In this document: one piece after another, positions 12,661 through 55,009 of the stretch
How the letters are laid out: each line of letters begins with the position of its first letter
Numbering within the stretch: position 1 is the stretch's first letter
Source: a virus
Reading direction: 5' to 3' (one strand)
IMG/VR virus record: IMGVR_UViG_3300032118_003132
Span: 1-64,000 of that record
DNA: 64,000 nucleotides
Notes under the pieces: model-generated
Told to the model about the DNA's origin: nothing
Database searches by the model: none
The model's input: the letters and a program-made list of their open reading frames with translations, nothing else
Program-made: the position numbers and the translations under genes

Positions 12661-14643
12661 ATGAGTTTATTCAATAGAATCAATAGAGGGATTAGGATAG
12701 GTTTAAGAGCATTCCAGAATGTTCCAGATATGGATTTAGTTGCTAAACAATTAGATATCGCTATTGCCTCGGGTGCTCTTCCAGTTATAGAGGAGAAAGA
12801 GAAACCTATCTCCCAACTCGATATTAGAAGTACTGATAGAGATATGACGTTGAGTATGGCTTATGGCTCTCTTAGGGCATTCTTTTCTCATCATCCTATA
12901 GGTATCACACCTTACGGTACACCAGGGAGAGATACATATCTTTCTGAGTTTTGGAGATCTGAGCCAATATTGGCTGGTGCGGTCTATTCCATGTCTGCTA
13001 AAATGTCATCTCTTAGTTGGATTATGAGTGGTCCTAGATTAAAGGCTCTGAAGGCTGCTAGGTTGCTTGCCAGAGCTGCTCATATGGGAGGTCAGGATTG
13101 GGGTGGTTTCCTGTCTCCTTCAGCACAGGATTGGTATGCAACTAATAACGGAATATTCTGGGAGACTGCTAGAGATAATATTGGTCTTGGAAATCTCAAT
13201 AATCTGGCTGGTCCTCTGGCAGATATAGGACATATTGACTCTTTATGTTGTACCCTGACTGGTAATACTGATCTGCCAATGCTATATGTCTCAGAGATAT
13301 CTGGACAGACTCTTAGGTTCAGAGAGGGTGAGTATATCCATTTTGCATCTCTTCCTAGTGCACGTGAGCAATATCTTGGCATAGGTTTCTGTGCTGTTGA
13401 CAGAGCATATAGAGCTGCTAAATTGATAATGGGTCTTCATGATTACGATGCAGAAAAATTAGCCAATCTTCCTCCTGAGGGTATAGCAACAGTCACTGGT
13501 CTGACCATGGATGAGTTTATGGATGCTCTTAGACTTTGGAAATTGCAAAGAGAGAAGGATAATTCCCTCACGTTTCCTCAGATATTGTGGCTCATTGGTT
13601 CACAACCAAACACAGAAGTCAAGGTTGCGATTGAAGGATTTTCTCAAATTCCTGAGAGCTTTGACAGAGACAGTGTTATGAGCCATTATATTTCCACTCT
13701 TGCTTTGGACTTTGGTGTAGATGCTAGAGAGTTTTGGCCAATAAGCTCGGGTGCTTTGGGAACAGCATCTGAATCCGAGATTCAGCACCTTAAGGCTAAA
13801 GGCAAAGGTCCAGGAGAGTTTATATCTACTTCTGAGAGAATGATTAATGGGGAACTGCCAGAGGGTGTGGACTTTGCATATGATACTCAGGATATCGAGG
13901 AAGACCAGAATGCTGCCACAGTTGCAAAAGCCTGGGTAGATGTATATTATCCTCTGTATCAAGGCACTCCTGCCGGCAAGACTGGTCAAGGTGTCTCACA
14001 ACCTGAGCAGAAAGAAACTCCTGCAAGAACTGCCGAGACGGATTTCCAAAAACCTCCTAAGAATGGTATGATAGGAGACCAACAACCTAAGAATCCTCAG
14101 GAGAAACCTGGTGGGTTCCCCACAGGAATGCCTGGTAACTTTGGTGCTCCTCAAGTAGAGCAACTTATTACCAAAGACCAAATGATTCGACTTTTAGTAG
14201 ATAAACGAGTATTGCCAGAATACATGATTAATGATGAGCGAATTAGTGTGTATGATTATGAGGTTCATCTTACTAAGGAGAATAAGGAAGATGATGCTAA
14301 GTTTGTGTGGAGTAAGGGAGTTCTGAAAGAGGTGCGACTCTCTCCCATTGTTATATATTCCAAGCCGACCGACCAGTCAATACCCGAGGTAGAGCCAGCT
14401 TTGGAAATTCAGACTTCTGAGGATAAAGTCTTAGAGTATCTCAAACAGAAGGAAAATGAGATCTTTGAGTCTAAACGTGATATAACTGGCAAACCTATTC
14501 CTGAAGGGGAAGTAGTTAGGGGAGCCTCTGTGACCAAAGTTACTATCCGTGATGAGATTAATCGATGGCGTGCACATCCCGTACTTTCTCTATATGTTCC
14601 CACAACCGAGGAACTAGAAAAGCTATTGGGAGGTGCCAAATGA
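12661..14643 (+). CDS. Portal protein
   Basis: 660 residues; forms the dodecameric ring at the capsid vertex through which DNA enters. Recognised from the pattern of the central part: RSEPILAGAVYSMSAKMSSL, FREGEYIHFASLP, YLGIGFCAVDRAYRAAKLIMGL, and the segment SHYISTLALDFGVDAREFWPI with its SESEIQHLKAKGKG continuation. The C-terminal ~170 residues are a low-complexity Pro/Gln/Glu-rich linker and an extra domain. There is no obvious ribosome-binding site near the ATG; the CTCTGGGA upstream is weak. Followed directly by a GIY-YIG gene overlapping its stop. Confidence 0.85.
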   Translation: MSLFNRINRGIRIGLRAFQNVPDMDLVAKQLDIAIASGALPVIEEKEKPISQLDIRSTDRDMTLSMAYGSLRAFFSHHPIGITPYGTPGRDTYLSEFWRSEPILAGAVYSMSAKMSSLSWIMSGPRLKALKAARLLARAAHMGGQDWGGFLSPSAQDWYATNNGIFWETARDNIGLGNLNNLAGPLADIGHIDSLCCTLTGNTDLPMLYVSEISGQTLRFREGEYIHFASLPSAREQYLGIGFCAVDRAYRAAKLIMGLHDYDAEKLANLPPEGIATVTGLTMDEFMDALRLWKLQREKDNSLTFPQILWLIGSQPNTEVKVAIEGFSQIPESFDRDSVMSHYISTLALDFGVDAREFWPISSGALGTASESEIQHLKAKGKGPGEFISTSERMINGELPEGVDFAYDTQDIEEDQNAATVAKAWVDVYYPLYQGTPAGKTGQGVSQPEQKETPARTAETDFQKPPKNGMIGDQQPKNPQEKPGGFPTGMPGNFGAPQVEQLITKDQMIRLLVDKRVLPEYMINDERISVYDYEVHLTKENKEDDAKFVWSKGVLKEVRLSPIVIYSKPTDQSIPEVEPALEIQTSEDKVLEYLKQKENEIFESKRDITGKPIPEGEVVRGASVTKVTIRDEINRWRAHPVLSLYVPTTEELEKLLGGAK

Positions 14644-15233
14644 CTTGTGGTGTATATCAAATACAAAATGTTATTAATTATCATAGATATATAGGTTCTT
14701 CTATAAATATAGAAGGTCGAATTAGTGGTCATTCCAGAGGGTTGGAAAGAAATTGTCACAGCAATATGCATTTACAGAGAGCTTTCAATAAATATGGAGA
14801 AGATAGTTTTGAATATGATATATTGATGATTTGTGATTTGAACATGTTGAGTTGGTATGAGCAAAGATGTTTAGATAAGTTTAAACCTGAATATAATATT
14901 GCTACAGACACTATTTCTCCAATGAGAGGAAAGAAATTTTCAGAAAAATATAGAAATAAAATATCTAAATCATTAATTGGCAATAAGAATATGCTAGGAC
15001 ATAGACATACTGAAGAGTCTAGGAAAAAGATGTCTGAAGTTCAGAAAGGTCATCCACCGAGTAATAATAAGGGGGGTTTTACAGGGCATAAGCATAATGA
15101 TGAAACTAAGAAAAAATTATCATTAATGAAAATAGGACATATACATAGTGATGAAACTAAGAAGAAAATATCTGAAGCCAGGAAACACTATTGGATAAAA
15201 AGAAATAATGGAAAACTATTAGGAGGTAAGTAA
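14640..15233 (+). CDS. Free-standing GIY-YIG homing endonuclease with NUMOD3 repeats
   Basis: 197 residues from the ATG overlapping the portal stop (ATGA), with GGGAGG upstream. N-terminal GIY-YIG nuclease: GVYQI and YIGSS, conserved R in GRISGH, N in FNKYGEDSF and catalytic E in WYEQRCLDKF. The C-terminus carries several NUMOD3-type DNA-binding repeats (HTEESRKKMSEVQKG, HNDETKKKLSLMKIG, HSDETKKKISEARKH). It is very AT-rich compared with its neighbours, as expected for a selfish insert between two virion genes. One of three such genes in the window. Confidence 0.9.
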   Translation: MTCGVYQIQNVINYHRYIGSSINIEGRISGHSRGLERNCHSNMHLQRAFNKYGEDSFEYDILMICDLNMLSWYEQRCLDKFKPEYNIATDTISPMRGKKFSEKYRNKISKSLIGNKNMLGHRHTEESRKKMSEVQKGHPPSNNKGGFTGHKHNDETKKKLSLMKIGHIHSDETKKKISEARKHYWIKRNNGKLLGGK

Positions 15234-32597: not shown

Positions 32598-33332
32598 ATG
32601 ATATCTGGCGTATATTGTATTAAGAATGTGATAAGTAATAAAATGTATATTGGTTCTTCTTGTAATGTAGAAGATAGAATCTATATGCATTTTTATGATT
32701 TAGAGAATGGAAATCATTTTAATCATCATTTGCAAAGTGCATATAATAAATATGGTGATGATACTTTCATAACCATATTATTGAAGACCTGTAAAAGGAA
32801 GAATTTATTTTATTGGGAACAAGCATTCATAGATGATTATAATCCATCTTATAATATACGGAAAATAGTTGAAGGTCCAGGAAAGAATTCAGAAGAATCT
32901 AGACACAAAATGTCCTTGGCATTGAAATTGCGCAAAGAACGTCTTGGATATACGCATTCTCCAGAAACCAAAAGAAAGATATCTGAAACTTTGAAGGGTC
33001 GTATTTCTCAAATGAAAGGGAAGAAAATGTCTAAAGAATCTAGACATAGAATGTCTCTTTCTAAGATAGGTAAACCCCCACCAAATAAAGGTAAGAAGAT
33101 GTCTAAAGAATTTAGAGATAAAATATCGAAAGCTGGGATTGGTAGAATTCCATGGAATAAAGGTAAGAAAATGTCCGAAGAATTTAGGAAAAATGTATCA
33201 GAAGGTCATAAAGGTCATGTTCCTTGGAATAAAGGTAAAGTAGGATATAAAATATGTAAAATATCCGAAGAAACTAAGAAGAAAATATCTAGGACATTGA
33301 GATATAGATATAGTATGATGCATTCAAATTAG
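32598..33332 (+). CDS. GIY-YIG homing endonuclease with NUMOD3 repeats (second copy)
   Basis: 244 residues. GIY-YIG core: GVYCIKN, MYIGSS, R in EDRIYMH, YNKYGDDTF, catalytic E in YWEQAFIDDY. The C-terminus carries five or six NUMOD3-type repeats (SEESRHKMSLALK, SPETKRKISETLKG, SKESRHRMSLSKIG, SKEFRDKISKAGIG and more) with NKGKKMS spacers. It sits between the head module and the helicase gene and is more AT-rich than neighbours. Paralogue of the genes at 14640 and 40851. Confidence 0.9.
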   Translation: MISGVYCIKNVISNKMYIGSSCNVEDRIYMHFYDLENGNHFNHHLQSAYNKYGDDTFITILLKTCKRKNLFYWEQAFIDDYNPSYNIRKIVEGPGKNSEESRHKMSLALKLRKERLGYTHSPETKRKISETLKGRISQMKGKKMSKESRHRMSLSKIGKPPPNKGKKMSKEFRDKISKAGIGRIPWNKGKKMSEEFRKNVSEGHKGHVPWNKGKVGYKICKISEETKKKISRTLRYRYSMMHSN

Positions 33333-40846: not shown

Positions 40847-40850
40847 TTTG

Positions 40851-41519
40851 ATGAATAAGAGTGGTATTTATTGGATAAGAAATAAAATTAATAATCATAT
40901 TTATATAGGATCATCTATAAATATGATTGGTAGGAAACATAAGCATTCTCGTTTGTTAAATAGGAAAGCACATGAAAATAGTCATTTACAAAATGTGTAT
41001 AATAAATATGGTCTCAAGAATTTTAGATTTAAAATATTAATAATCTGTGATCCAAATATGTTATTATTCTATGAGCAACAATTTTTGGATTATTTTCATC
41101 CTCAATATAATATATGTCCAACTGCTGGTAATAATGGAGGTCATAAATGTTCTGAAGAAACTAAAAGAAAAATATCTTTGGCACATATAGGATATAAATT
41201 CTCTAAAGATGCCAAGAAGAATATGTCTATTGCACAAATGGGACACAAACGAAAAGGATGGAAATTATCAAAAGAAACAAAAAAGAAAATATCTATTGCG
41301 CGTAAAGGGCATATGGTATCTGAAGAAACAAAAAAGAAAATATCAAAATCAAATGTTGGACAAAAACGTTCTGAAAATACCAAACATAAAATATCAGAAT
41401 GTTTGATAGGTAATAAAAATAGTAAAGGACGTAAATGGTCTGATGAGGATAAACGTAAAATATCAGAACGTATGAAAGGTAATAGGAATTGGGACAATGG
41501 ATATAATGATTGGAAATAA
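40851..41519 (+). CDS. GIY-YIG homing endonuclease with NUMOD3 repeats (third copy)
   Basis: 222 residues from the ATG at 40851. Core: GIYWIRN, IYIGSS, YNKYGLKNF and catalytic E in FYEQQFLDYF; then NUMOD3-type repeats (SEETKRKISLAHIG, SKETKKKISIARKG, SEETKKKISKSNVG, SDEDKRKISERMKG). Very AT-rich. Located between the broken DUF4031 gene and tRNA-Asn, and may have disturbed this locus when it arrived. Confidence 0.9.
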   Translation: MNKSGIYWIRNKINNHIYIGSSINMIGRKHKHSRLLNRKAHENSHLQNVYNKYGLKNFRFKILIICDPNMLLFYEQQFLDYFHPQYNICPTAGNNGGHKCSEETKRKISLAHIGYKFSKDAKKNMSIAQMGHKRKGWKLSKETKKKISIARKGHMVSEETKKKISKSNVGQKRSENTKHKISECLIGNKNSKGRKWSDEDKRKISERMKGNRNWDNGYNDWK

Positions 41520-41528
41520 TTTAAATCT

Positions 41529-41600
41529 GCTCCTGTGGCTTAATGGTAAAGCAAACGGCTGTTAACCGTGAGATTGCAGGTTCGAATCCTGCCAGGAGCG
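41529..41600 (+). tRNA. tRNA-Asn (anticodon GTT)
   Basis: 72-nt cloverleaf: acceptor GCTCCTG/CAGGAGC, D arm with AATGGTAA loop, anticodon loop CTGTTAA giving GTT, T arm GCAGG-TTCGAAT-CCTGC. CCA is not encoded. Asn codons are frequent in this AT-rich phage, so extra tRNA-Asn would help translation. A terminator follows directly. Confidence 0.95.
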
Positions 41601-41601
41601 C

Positions 41602-53107: not shown

Positions 53108-53297
53108 TGATGAATTGCTGATTCAAGCCAAAGGATTACAGTCTTGCGTTGAAATGGTAAATTCTCTTAAAGCACAGAATCAGGAGTTGATAGCAGCCTT
53201 AGAAAGGATTGTGTTAGCAAAGTATTGGATTGGCAGAGATTATAAATTATTTGCTGAAGGAATTTTGTTAAAGACAAAGGAGAAATACAATGGCTAA
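53100..53297 (+). CDS. Small hypothetical protein
   Basis: 65 residues, 8-nt overlap with the polymerase gene. Predicted helical (LQSCVEMVNSLKAQNQELIAALERIVLA), coiled-coil-like. Overlaps the next gene by 8 nt. Confidence 0.5.
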   Translation: MDDDELLIQAKGLQSCVEMVNSLKAQNQELIAALERIVLAKYWIGRDYKLFAEGILLKTKEKYNG

Positions 53298-53793
53298 AGT
53301 AATTGAGGTTATATTCCCTGGTAAGGAAAAGGTTCTAATCAACCTTGATGAATTATTGGAAATCCATGAGGAGAACCTGGTTGCCGAATATGCCAAACAG
53401 GCATCATTATATGCCTATCATGGTACACTATATAATCGGGCTGATAAATCGGTTATGGAATTGGAGGCAGCTAAGGACTCATCTTATGCCGAGTTAGATT
53501 TGGCATATCGGGAAGACTTGAAGGATGAGAAGACTACCGAGACTAAAATAAAATCCATGGTATTAACAGATAAAGGTTATGATGAGATTTTGGGAAAGCT
53601 GAACTATGCAATTTATCGTAAAGGCATTATGCGTACTCTTATGGATGCTCTAAAAATGAGAGCCGATATGCTGGTCTCTATGGGAGCACATCTCCGTGCA
53701 GAGTTTGAACAGACTGGCATGAGCCTTAAAGCAGATAAATGGCTGAAGGATTTCGAAGAAAGTTTGGATAAGATAAAGAATAAACAAGTTTAG
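53290..53793 (+). CDS. Helical protein upstream of the ssDNA-binding protein
   Basis: 167 residues with AAGGAG. N-terminal strands (KVIEVIFPGKEKVLINLDELLEI), then long helices (DKSVMELEAAKDSSYAELDLAYRE; GIMRTLMDALKMRADMLVSMGAHLRAEFE). It resembles helical proteins encoded next to phage ssDNA-binding proteins, perhaps a recombination mediator. Stop lies in a copy of the recurrent motif (Q-V-stop). Confidence 0.55.
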   Translation: MAKVIEVIFPGKEKVLINLDELLEIHEENLVAEYAKQASLYAYHGTLYNRADKSVMELEAAKDSSYAELDLAYREDLKDEKTTETKIKSMVLTDKGYDEILGKLNYAIYRKGIMRTLMDALKMRADMLVSMGAHLRAEFEQTGMSLKADKWLKDFEESLDKIKNKQV

Positions 53794-53799
53794 TATATT
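53784..53799 (+). promoter_or_regulatory. Recurrent ACAAGTTTAGTATATT element, copy 8
   Basis: Directly precedes the structured RNA region. Ends in TATATT, close to a -10 hexamer. Same arrangement as copy 6 before the other structured RNA. Confidence 0.55.
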
Positions 53800-53813
53800 A
53801 TGACTACTCTACT

Positions 53814-54102
53814 CATCTCGTGTCGCTTGACAGCACTTTGGCGTGATTTCCGAGATGCAGGGTCGCACCCTTGTCTTGGTTGTCTTGGAGCAAAGGTCGC
53901 AACTTAGACGAATGAATGGAGTAATCATAACTAGCCGAGAGGGTTGCATTAAAGACCCGTGAGAGGGAAACCTCTCCTCGGCTACATCTTGCCAGTCTCT
54001 GCACCCAACCGAATTCAGCCCCTTTGGGTGGGCAGGTAAAAGGGTCCGAATCCCGGACTGGCACTTGGAAGACTGTCAGAAATCTCATAGAGCCTGGTGA
54101 CA
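53814..54102 (+). ncRNA. Large structured non-coding RNA (candidate new class)
   Basis: A 370-bp gap without a gene holds an ordered set of helices: CATCTCG/CGAGATG (53814-53820 with 53851-53857) enclosing two small hairpins; AGGGT/ACCCT (53859-53871); GTCT-GTTG with CAAC-AGAC (53873-53909); a perfect three-way junction closed by AGCCGAG/CTCGGCT (53933-53939 with 53977-53983) with GGGT/ACCC and GAGAGG-GAAA-CCTCTC arms; a tRNA-like domain closed by TGCCAGTC/GACTGGCA (53990-53997 with 54056-54063) holding CTGC-ACCCAA with TTGGGT-GCAG and a T-arm-like GGG-TCCGAAT-CCC; then TGTCA/TGACA (54074-54102). It starts just after a promoter-like motif. I could not match it to tmRNA, RNase P RNA, 6S or a self-splicing intron. 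Confidence 0.75.
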
Positions 54103-54163
54103 TGGTTGCATAGAGACAAAAATGAGTCCGCAAAGACTGCAAAATCTTATGTAAAGGAGAAAT

Positions 54164-55009
54164 ATGGCTACAAAAGTAAGTCCCACCAAACAGGTAAGTA
54201 AATTGGATAAACTAAAAGAGCGACTCTCCAAGATCGATATGGGCTTCGGCTCCGGTTTCTTTGGTCCAAAAGAGGGACGCAATGTTATCCGCATTCTGCC
54301 TCCTGTGGGCGATATGGAATATTTCTTTCAGACCGTTGGAAGACATTATTTCCCACCCGATGGAAAGAAGAATGTGTATTGTCCCAATTTCACCAGTGAT
54401 GGAGAGTTGTCTTGTCCAGTTTGTGAATTGGTTACACAACTGAAGACAGCTGGTGAAAAGAAGATGGCTGATGATCTGAAACTCCGTCGTAACTTCTGGA
54501 TGAATATTATCAACAGAGACGATGTGGGTGCAGGAGTGTTAATTTATACTCCTGGTATCATAGTCTTCAGTGAACTTTCCAGTCTGATCTCAGATCCAGA
54601 CTATGGTGATATCACAGATATCAATAATGGTTATGATATCATTATTGAAAAGAGTGGTACAGGTAGAGATACCGAATACCATGTTAAACCTCGTCCAAAA
54701 GTAACTCCCTTAACCGATGACCAGGATGAACTAGATAATTGGCTGGAAAAAGCCAATGATTTATCCTTTGTGGAGGTTAGTGAAGATCCAGAAGAGGATA
54801 AGGAATTATCCAAGGGACATACCCTTTATGTTCTGCCATATGATCGGATTGTGAGGGAATTCCAACTCGATGAATTGACAGAGACAGAAGAAGATGAAGA
54901 AGTTGAGGAGGAGGAAGAAGAAGCCGAGGAAGAGGAAGTACCTGTAAAAAAGCATGCCGTAAAAGAAGAGGTTAATTTCCGTCGGAAGCGACGTGCTATC
55001 AGAAGGTAA
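54164..55009 (+). CDS. Single-stranded DNA-binding protein, T4 gp32-like
   Basis: 281 residues with AAAGGAG. SGFFGPKEGRNVIRILPP starts the OB fold; CPNFTSDGELSCPVCELV supplies a C...C-x-x-C zinc site as in gp32-like proteins; the C-terminal ~45 residues are almost all Glu/Asp before a short basic end (FRRKRRAIRR), whereas most SSBs end acidic. It covers ssDNA during replication and recombination. Codon use suggests high expression, and the structured RNA just upstream may be its leader. Confidence 0.85.
   Translation: MATKVSPTKQVSKLDKLKERLSKIDMGFGSGFFGPKEGRNVIRILPPVGDMEYFFQTVGRHYFPPDGKKNVYCPNFTSDGELSCPVCELVTQLKTAGEKKMADDLKLRRNFWMNIINRDDVGAGVLIYTPGIIVFSELSSLISDPDYGDITDINNGYDIIIEKSGTGRDTEYHVKPRPKVTPLTDDQDELDNWLEKANDLSFVEVSEDPEEDKELSKGHTLYVLPYDRIVREFQLDELTETEEDEEVEEEEEEAEEEEVPVKKHAVKEEVNFRRKRRAIRR

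What the first reader, a model, noticed from the sequence alone, without database searches (positions are those of the whole stretch)
53814..54102. Candidate new class of large structured RNA
About 290 nt with at least seven helices, including a perfect three-way junction with a GAAA-capped arm and a terminal tRNA-like domain (8-bp closing stem plus 3-bp T-arm-like hairpin with loop TCCGAAT). It is the only gap over 300 bp in the window, begins after a promoter-like motif and precedes the ssDNA-binding protein. It did not match the RNAs I know.
Basis: seen in the sequence. Interest (0 to 1): 0.82.

Follow-up and report, generated by a model that had tools for sequence, protein, structure and literature searches.

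The report
tRNA-mimic RNA before phage SSB gene
A phage carries, in the gap just before its single-stranded-DNA-binding protein gene, a conserved RNA that copies the upper half of a tRNA; related phages have it in the same gap, and many other phages carry smaller versions between their genes, apparently undescribed marks where the phage message may be cut.

Summary
The structured RNA is real, but it is a composite, not one conserved 290-nt class. Its conserved core is the tRNA-like domain at 53991-54064: 7-bp acceptor stem, T-arm, hairpin replacing the D/anticodon part, then unpaired A-C. Six relatives (L008, L009, L010, L013, L014, L100) carry it in the same gap before the SSB gene. The upstream long-stem domain and three-way junction (about 185 nt) and a 55-nt stretch downstream are extra in this phage. 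The three-way junction scores just above Rfam's cut-off for DUF3800-VI (37.6 vs 35 bits) but lacks that family's context.

Following the core led to a much larger class: minimal 40-nt tRNA mimics (5-bp acceptor, GGCANACA loop, 6-bp T-stem, TTCGAGT loop, A-C tail), up to 15 per phage genome. In annotated phages 42 of 43 model hits lie in gaps that make up 15% of the sequence, usually 5-15 nt after a stop codon. Stems covary, the base at 73 is always a purine and at 74 is C in 98%; no U-run follows. I found no Rfam family and no paper.

Best mechanism (inferred): RNase P substrates that punctuate phage mRNAs, as tRNAs do in mitochondria. No cleavage was tested. The window element does not match the short-element model; it is a longer relative or analogue.

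The parts
53290..53793 (+). upstream gene, UvsY-like recombination mediator (weak profile match); ends ...KQV-stop
   Evidence: ORF; phrog_231 E 2.3e-4, phrog_2058 E 8e-21
53798..53930 (+). long imperfect stem domain, inside the lineage-specific 5' insertion (insertion about 53804-53987)
   Evidence: z -3.7; absent from L008, L009, L010, L100
53931..53985 (+). three-way junction with GAAA-capped arm; RF02915 (DUF3800-VI) match at 53932-53984, 37.6 bits, gathering 35; also inside the 5' insertion
   Evidence: z -5.3
53991..54064 (+). tRNA-like domain: acceptor 53991-53997 / 54056-54062, T-stem 54041-54044 / 54052-54055 (outer A-G mismatch), T-loop TCCGAAT 54045-54051, A73 at 54063, C74 at 54064; predicted RNase P cut between 53990 and 53991
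   Evidence: descriptor scan; exact string and pair table; relatives
53999..54035 (+). hairpin that replaces the D/anticodon part; conserved loop GAATTCAGCC at 54011-54020 followed by GGG and GGCA
   Evidence: alignments; L100 folds into the same shape
54068..54122 (+). second segment absent from L008, between CTTG and GAGTCCGCAAAGACT; no stable fold of the tail
54124..54138 (+). short hairpin AGTC-CGCAAA-GACT, identical in L008; other sequences with small hairpins stand there in L009 and L010
   Evidence: sequence
54153..54159 (+). Shine-Dalgarno AAAGGAG of the SSB gene
   Evidence: sequence
54164..55009 (+). single-stranded-DNA-binding protein gene
   Evidence: phrog_1192 E 6e-37; relatives

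Best explanation
53991-54064 is a tRNA mimic placed in the mRNA between the UvsY-like and SSB genes. I infer that host RNase P recognises its stacked acceptor/T-arm and A-C end and cuts before G53991. This would separate the two messages, giving the SSB mRNA a 5' end buried in a stable fold and the upstream RNA a defined 3' end. In this phage a separate structured segment (long stem plus three-way junction) has been inserted upstream and would be released as the 3' end of the upstream product. Shown: anatomy, conservation, position, insertion. Inferred: RNase P, and any effect on mRNA stability or SSB expression. The short elements in other phages point to the same job done many times per genome; whether the two types share ancestry is not shown.
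For: Six relatives have the domain between the same two genes (L013/L014 with one extra ORF); acceptor pairs are kept in 7 of 7 sequences with a C-G/T-A/T-G change at pair 6, and T-stem pairs 3 and 4 change on both sides while pairing in 6 of 7. Descriptor hits are confined to that gap plus the tRNA-Asn. Short analogues: 188 of 201 pattern hits have 5/5 acceptor pairs although the pattern did not ask for it, with 28 acceptor sequences among the 178 fully paired; 99.5% paired cells and 392 cells changed on both sides in 135 distinct sequences (model-fitted); 42 of 43 in gaps, 5-15 nt after the stop typically; purine at 73 in 100%, C at 74 in 98%, G1-C72 in 94%, no T-run in 161, ribosome-binding site and start downstream in 107 vs 16-20 in controls. 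The RNase P review PMC11143913 says that hairpins of acceptor + T-stem + T-loop are efficient substrates, that the 12-bp acceptor/T stack acts as a ruler, that R73-C74-C75 pair with the enzyme RNA, and that T4 gene 32 mRNA (own knowledge: T4's SSB gene) was the first mRNA reported as a substrate.
Against: No cleavage, transcript or 5'-end data. The window copy is weaker than its relatives: C at T-loop position 55, an A-G mismatch in the T-stem, ACT rather than ACC at the 3' end, and a fold energy not clearly better than shuffles (z -1.4). It is not hit by the short-element model. The first five acceptor pairs never vary in the long type, so covariation there is thin. L001, L011, L015, L016 and L017 lack the domain, so it is not essential in this phage family.
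Confidence: 0.48

Rival explanations
1. A cis-regulatory leader of the SSB gene: the tRNA mimic is bound by a protein or the ribosome (for example SSB itself, an aminoacyl-tRNA synthetase or EF-Tu) and controls translation of SSB, without being cut.
For: Always just before SSB in the window's relatives; invariant first five acceptor pairs and conserved loop GAA(T/A)TCAGCCTCC look like a binding site; phages are known to regulate their SSB translation (T4 gene 32, own knowledge).
Against: The short elements stand before many unrelated genes, up to 15 per genome, which argues against an SSB-specific regulator if the types are related; the domain is missing in relatives that still have SSB.
Confidence: 0.22
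2. One reading: the whole 290-nt stretch is a discrete noncoding RNA of a new large class.
For: Low free energy of the 5' insertion (z -4.6); large single gap; RNase P cutting at G1 would free a structured RNA of about 190 nt.
Against: Only the tRNA-like core is conserved; the remainder is missing from every relative and was not found in viral contigs or phage records (the last an exact 19-mer only).
Confidence: 0.12
3. A decayed tRNA gene or integration-site relic without present function.
For: T-arm and acceptor are tRNA-like; the window copy has drifted.
Against: The same derived shape and position persist in relatives whose DNA polymerases are 47-66% identical, with paired changes; ARAGORN and RF00005 do not see a tRNA.
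Confidence: 0.08
4. The three-way junction marks a DUF3800-VI RNA and the insertion is part of a DUF3800-linked mobile element.
For: 37.6 bits, above the gathering score; same junction bases A and GU.
Against: No DUF3800 gene in the record; members found in Gemmatimonadota score mostly 52-62 bits, share GGTTGGGAGGGCTG or a near form and are followed by a T-rich stretch, neither seen here.
Confidence: 0.04
5. Transcription terminators or attenuators.
For: Stable stems between genes.
Against: No T-run of 4 within 14 nt after any of 161 short elements, and T is depleted there (12%); the window domain is followed by ACTTGGAAG.
Confidence: 0.02

Closest known systems
Model RNase P hairpin substrates (AT1: acceptor stem + T-stem + T-loop; PMC11143913)
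   Same: coaxial acceptor/T-arm of about 12 bp, T-loop, purine 73 and C 74
   Different: AT1 is synthetic; here the shape occurs naturally between phage genes, without a full RCCA end in the window
Plant mitochondrial t-elements and MALAT1 mascRNA / menRNA (PMC4919922)
   Same: tRNA-like structure inside a longer transcript that marks where tRNA enzymes cut
   Different: organelle or nuclear; different sequence and anatomy; one phiScoe3 element scores 26.2 bits to the mascRNA-menRNA model, below its 42.5 cut-off
T4 gene 32 mRNA, bacteriophage M3 RNA and P1/P7 C4 RNA as RNase P substrates (PMC11143913)
   Same: phage RNAs cut by RNase P; gene 32 encodes T4's SSB (own knowledge)
   Different: not compared by sequence here; not a repeated intergenic element
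tmRNA tRNA-like domain
   Same: acceptor and T-arm without an anticodon arm
   Different: no tag frame or pseudoknots, 75 nt, not seen by ARAGORN, 3' end is not CCA
DUF3800-VI RNA (RF02915)
   Same: three-way junction with A and GU joining bases
   Different: no DUF3800 gene, no T-run, lower score

Membership tests
DUF3800-VI RNA (RF02915) | score above the gathering cut-off | tested here: met
   37.6 vs 35 bits; ten matches in Gemmatimonadota score 39-62
DUF3800-VI RNA (RF02915) | linked DUF3800 gene and T-run after the junction | tested here: not met
   no PF12686 in the record; L296 has a DUF3800-like ORF (by eye) 99 nt from the RNA start, and all eight fetched loci have a T-rich stretch after the junction
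tRNA | cloverleaf with anticodon arm | tested here: not met
   no ARAGORN or RF00005 match at 53990-54065
tmRNA | tRNA-like domain plus tag reading frame | tested here: not met
   ARAGORN finds none; no Rfam tmRNA match
RNase P minihelix substrates (works like) | stacked acceptor + T-stem of about 12 bp with T-loop | tested here: met
   7 + 4 positions in the window (one mismatch), 7 + 5 in L009, L013, L014, L100
RNase P minihelix substrates (works like) | 3' R73-C74-C75 | tested here: inconclusive
   A-C-T in the window and L008, A-C-C in L009, L010, L100
RNase P minihelix substrates (works like) | cleavage 5' of G1 | not testable with these tools
   needs enzyme assay or RNA ends
Short phage intergenic tRNA mimics (model R1, built here) | match to the covariance model | tested here: not met
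   window has only a partial 11-bit hit, to the tRNA-Asn T-arm
Short phage intergenic tRNA mimics (works like) | acceptor/T-arm with R73-C74, between a stop codon and the next ribosome-binding site | tested here: met
   distance from stop is long in the window because of the insertion
Large ornate RNAs (GOLLD, ROOL, OLE) | match to the Rfam model | tested here: not met
   none at gathering threshold in the window, none up to E 5 at the locus

The most novel reading that the evidence does not exclude
Phages of several host groups use minimal tRNA mimics as punctuation marks of their operons: host RNase P reads each mimic and cuts the polycistronic message between genes, giving each gene its own mRNA end. 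The window's domain is an elaborated form that also releases a lineage-specific structured RNA.
Probability: 0.35. Interest if true: 0.9.

Novelty: new variant of a known kind. Interest (0 to 1): 0.72.

Why it matters
tRNA-like processing marks in mRNAs are known from mitochondria and a few nuclear RNAs. A dispersed, multi-copy version between genes of bacterial viruses would be a general way of shaping phage gene expression that annotation has passed over: of the 60 phage records listed for one element (849 matching places in 145 records), none has an annotated feature under the match (one of the 60 has no annotation at all). It makes the open question of how far RNase P takes part in mRNA metabolism directly testable, because each element predicts a cut at one nucleotide.

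Tried and rejected
DNA search of the whole gap in 50,697 phage records: no match. DUF3800-VI-like patterns in viral contigs: one chance hit in coding sequence (L007); strict DUF3800-VI pattern: none in viral or genome contigs. Shared AAGGTCGCA between the window and L001: too short, about the number expected in the window. Bacterial Y RNA: the GACGAATG similarity was only a recollection and was dropped untested. Loop CCTCC as an anti-Shine-Dalgarno mimic: it resembles the 16S rRNA 3' end, but the relatives' SSB ribosome-binding sites do not follow it; left open. Greedy ORF calling on GC-rich contigs to place short elements failed, so annotated records were used. phiC31, Bxb1, R4, T4, lambda and SPO1 carry no short element, so they are not universal. 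RF02915 in 395 genomes of the Dysgonomonas phylum: none. MAFFT alignment of the long type misplaced the L008 T-arm, so pairs were tabulated from exact strings. Exact 19-mer of the three-way junction in viral contigs: none.

Full report
WHAT IS AT THE COORDINATES. The gap 53794-54163 lies between a UvsY-like gene and an SSB gene, inside a replication block (family A DNA polymerase, UvsY-like, SSB, SbcD-like, UvsX-like) of a 70.9-kb virus record. It folds better than shuffles as a whole (z -3.0; -3.5). By domain: a long stem 53798-53930 (z -3.7), a three-way junction 53931-53985 with a GAAA-capped arm (z -5.3), a tRNA-like domain 53991-54064 (z -1.4) and an unremarkable 3' tail.

RFAM. At gathering thresholds the only match besides a tRNA-Asn gene is RF02915 (DUF3800-VI) on the three-way junction, 37.6 bits against 35. 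I tested that lead. The record has no DUF3800 gene. Eight of 298 genomes from one phylum (that of the Gemmatimonadota genome in L263) carry matches, mostly 52-62 bits. Nearly all share CRGTTGGGAGGGCTG, are followed by a T-rich stretch, and at least L296 has a short ORF starting MHLLYLDDAGSAG nearby, which I read by eye as DUF3800-like without running Pfam on it. The window's junction has none of that context. I treat it as a look-alike or remote relative.

RELATIVES. An alignment of the DNA polymerase fetched related phages. In L008, L009, L010, L013 and L014 the gap before SSB holds a domain with acceptor GCCAG.. / ..CTGGC, a T-arm around TTCGANT, and A-C after it; L100 was found by pattern. 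L001, L011, L015, L016 and L017 lack it. L008 aligns with the window up to TATGA and again from the acceptor stem: the window has about 185 extra nt before the domain, holding both large helical domains, and about 55 extra nt after it. So the 290-nt feature is a conserved tRNA-like core plus lineage-specific insertions.

HOW STRONG IS THE CORE. A descriptor asking for a T-loop, T-stem, 5-7-bp acceptor and R-C finds five places in 921 kb of window and related loci: the tRNA-Asn, the window domain, L008, L009 and L010; five shuffled sets gave 0, 0, 1, 2, 1. Across seven sequences all acceptor pairs hold; pair 6 is T-A, C-G or T-G, and T-stem pairs 3 and 4 change on both sides. The first five acceptor pairs never vary, so the covariation evidence for the long type is modest. 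L100 folds exactly into acceptor, hairpin and T-arm (z -3.7); L008, L009 and L010 taken alone do not fold better than shuffles. The window copy is the most worn: C55 in the T-loop, one T-stem mismatch, ACT at the end. ARAGORN and the Rfam tRNA model do not see it.

A MUCH LARGER CLASS. Of 201 viral matches 188 have all five acceptor pairs and 190 all four free T-stem pairs, with 28 acceptor sequences among the 178 fully paired. The pattern did not ask for these pairs, so this is the cleanest test; the 99.5% paired cells and 392 double changes come from a model-fitted alignment and the 100% partly from selection. Copies per record reach 13 in Mycobacterium phage Rope (three of them weak), 8 in Streptomyces phage phiScoe3 and 15 in an IMG/VR contig; phiC31, Bxb1, R4, T4, lambda and SPO1 have none. 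BLAST with one element finds 849 places in 145 phage records, mostly Streptomyces phages; of the 60 records listed none has a feature annotated under the match. In annotated stretches of six phages 42 of 43 model hits lie wholly in gaps (15% of sequence, binomial P 6e-34, which ignores that some of the phages are related), and 41 of 54 gaps of 60 nt or more hold one. Distances are regular: 5-15 nt from stop to acceptor, 33-53 nt from A73 to the next start in most. A purine stands at 73 in 100% and C at 74 in 98%; no T-run follows; a ribosome-binding site and start follow in 107 of 161 against 16-20 in controls. No Rfam family matched six such loci at E up to 1, apart from sub-threshold hits, and I found no paper in the library, which holds open-licence papers only.

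MECHANISM. The shape is that of the classic RNase P model substrate; the review PMC11143913 describes acceptor/T-arm hairpins as sufficient, the 12-bp stack as a ruler and R73-C74-C75 as the part that pairs with the enzyme RNA. The conserved, unpaired R73-C74 is what RNase P would need and what a plain hairpin would not. T4 gene 32 mRNA was the first mRNA reported as an RNase P substrate (PMC11143913), and gene 32 is T4's SSB (own knowledge), an analogy only. The inferred outcome is a cut before G53991. No enzyme assay or RNA end supports this yet. The main rival is an uncut tRNA mimic that controls SSB translation.

RELATION OF THE TWO TYPES. The window domain does not match the short-element model. 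It shares position, acceptor/T-arm geometry, the T-loop class and R73-C74. Common descent is not shown; I claim only that it probably works alike.

NOVELTY. tRNA-like processing marks exist elsewhere (t-elements, MALAT1; PMC4919922), so the kind is known. A dispersed intergenic class in DNA phages appears undescribed.

Noticed in passing
L101, L102, L290, L291, L292, L293; IMG/VR loci L135-L247: Multi-copy 40-nt tRNA-like elements in gaps between phage genes (Streptomyces, Mycobacterium, Gordonia, Microbacterium phages and many IMG/VR contigs; a fragment-length hit in a cyanophage), not annotated and without an Rfam family.
   Followed up: yes
L013 and L014, gap before SSB: Very long version of the tRNA-like domain with a large insert between acceptor and T-arm, preceded by an extra ORF.
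   Followed up: partly
L263 (CP070815), L273, L283: Clusters of short elements in bacterial genomes (5, 4 and 11 copies within a few kb), possibly prophages or satellites.
   Followed up: no
L294-L301: DUF3800-VI RNAs in Gemmatimonadota genomes (8 of 298) with a promoter-like TTGAC upstream, a T-rich stretch after the junction and, at least in L296, a DUF3800-like ORF nearby.
   Followed up: partly
L102 2968-3036: Mycobacterium phage Rope gene 59 as annotated begins over a longer tRNA-like structure (ends GAGGTTCGATTCCTC); the start codon may be called too early.
   Followed up: no
L095 7439-7499: Sub-threshold type II hammerhead ribozyme match (31.7 bits, cut-off 37) in an IMG/VR phage contig.
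   Followed up: no
window 14565-15233, 32598-33332, 40848-41519: Three GIY-YIG-type homing endonucleases, the last directly before the phage's tRNA-Asn (41529-41601).
   Followed up: partly
window 54011-54020 and relatives: Loop GAA(T/A)TCAGCCTCC of the hairpin is the most conserved stretch of the long type and resembles the 3' end of 16S rRNA; its role is unexplained.
   Followed up: partly
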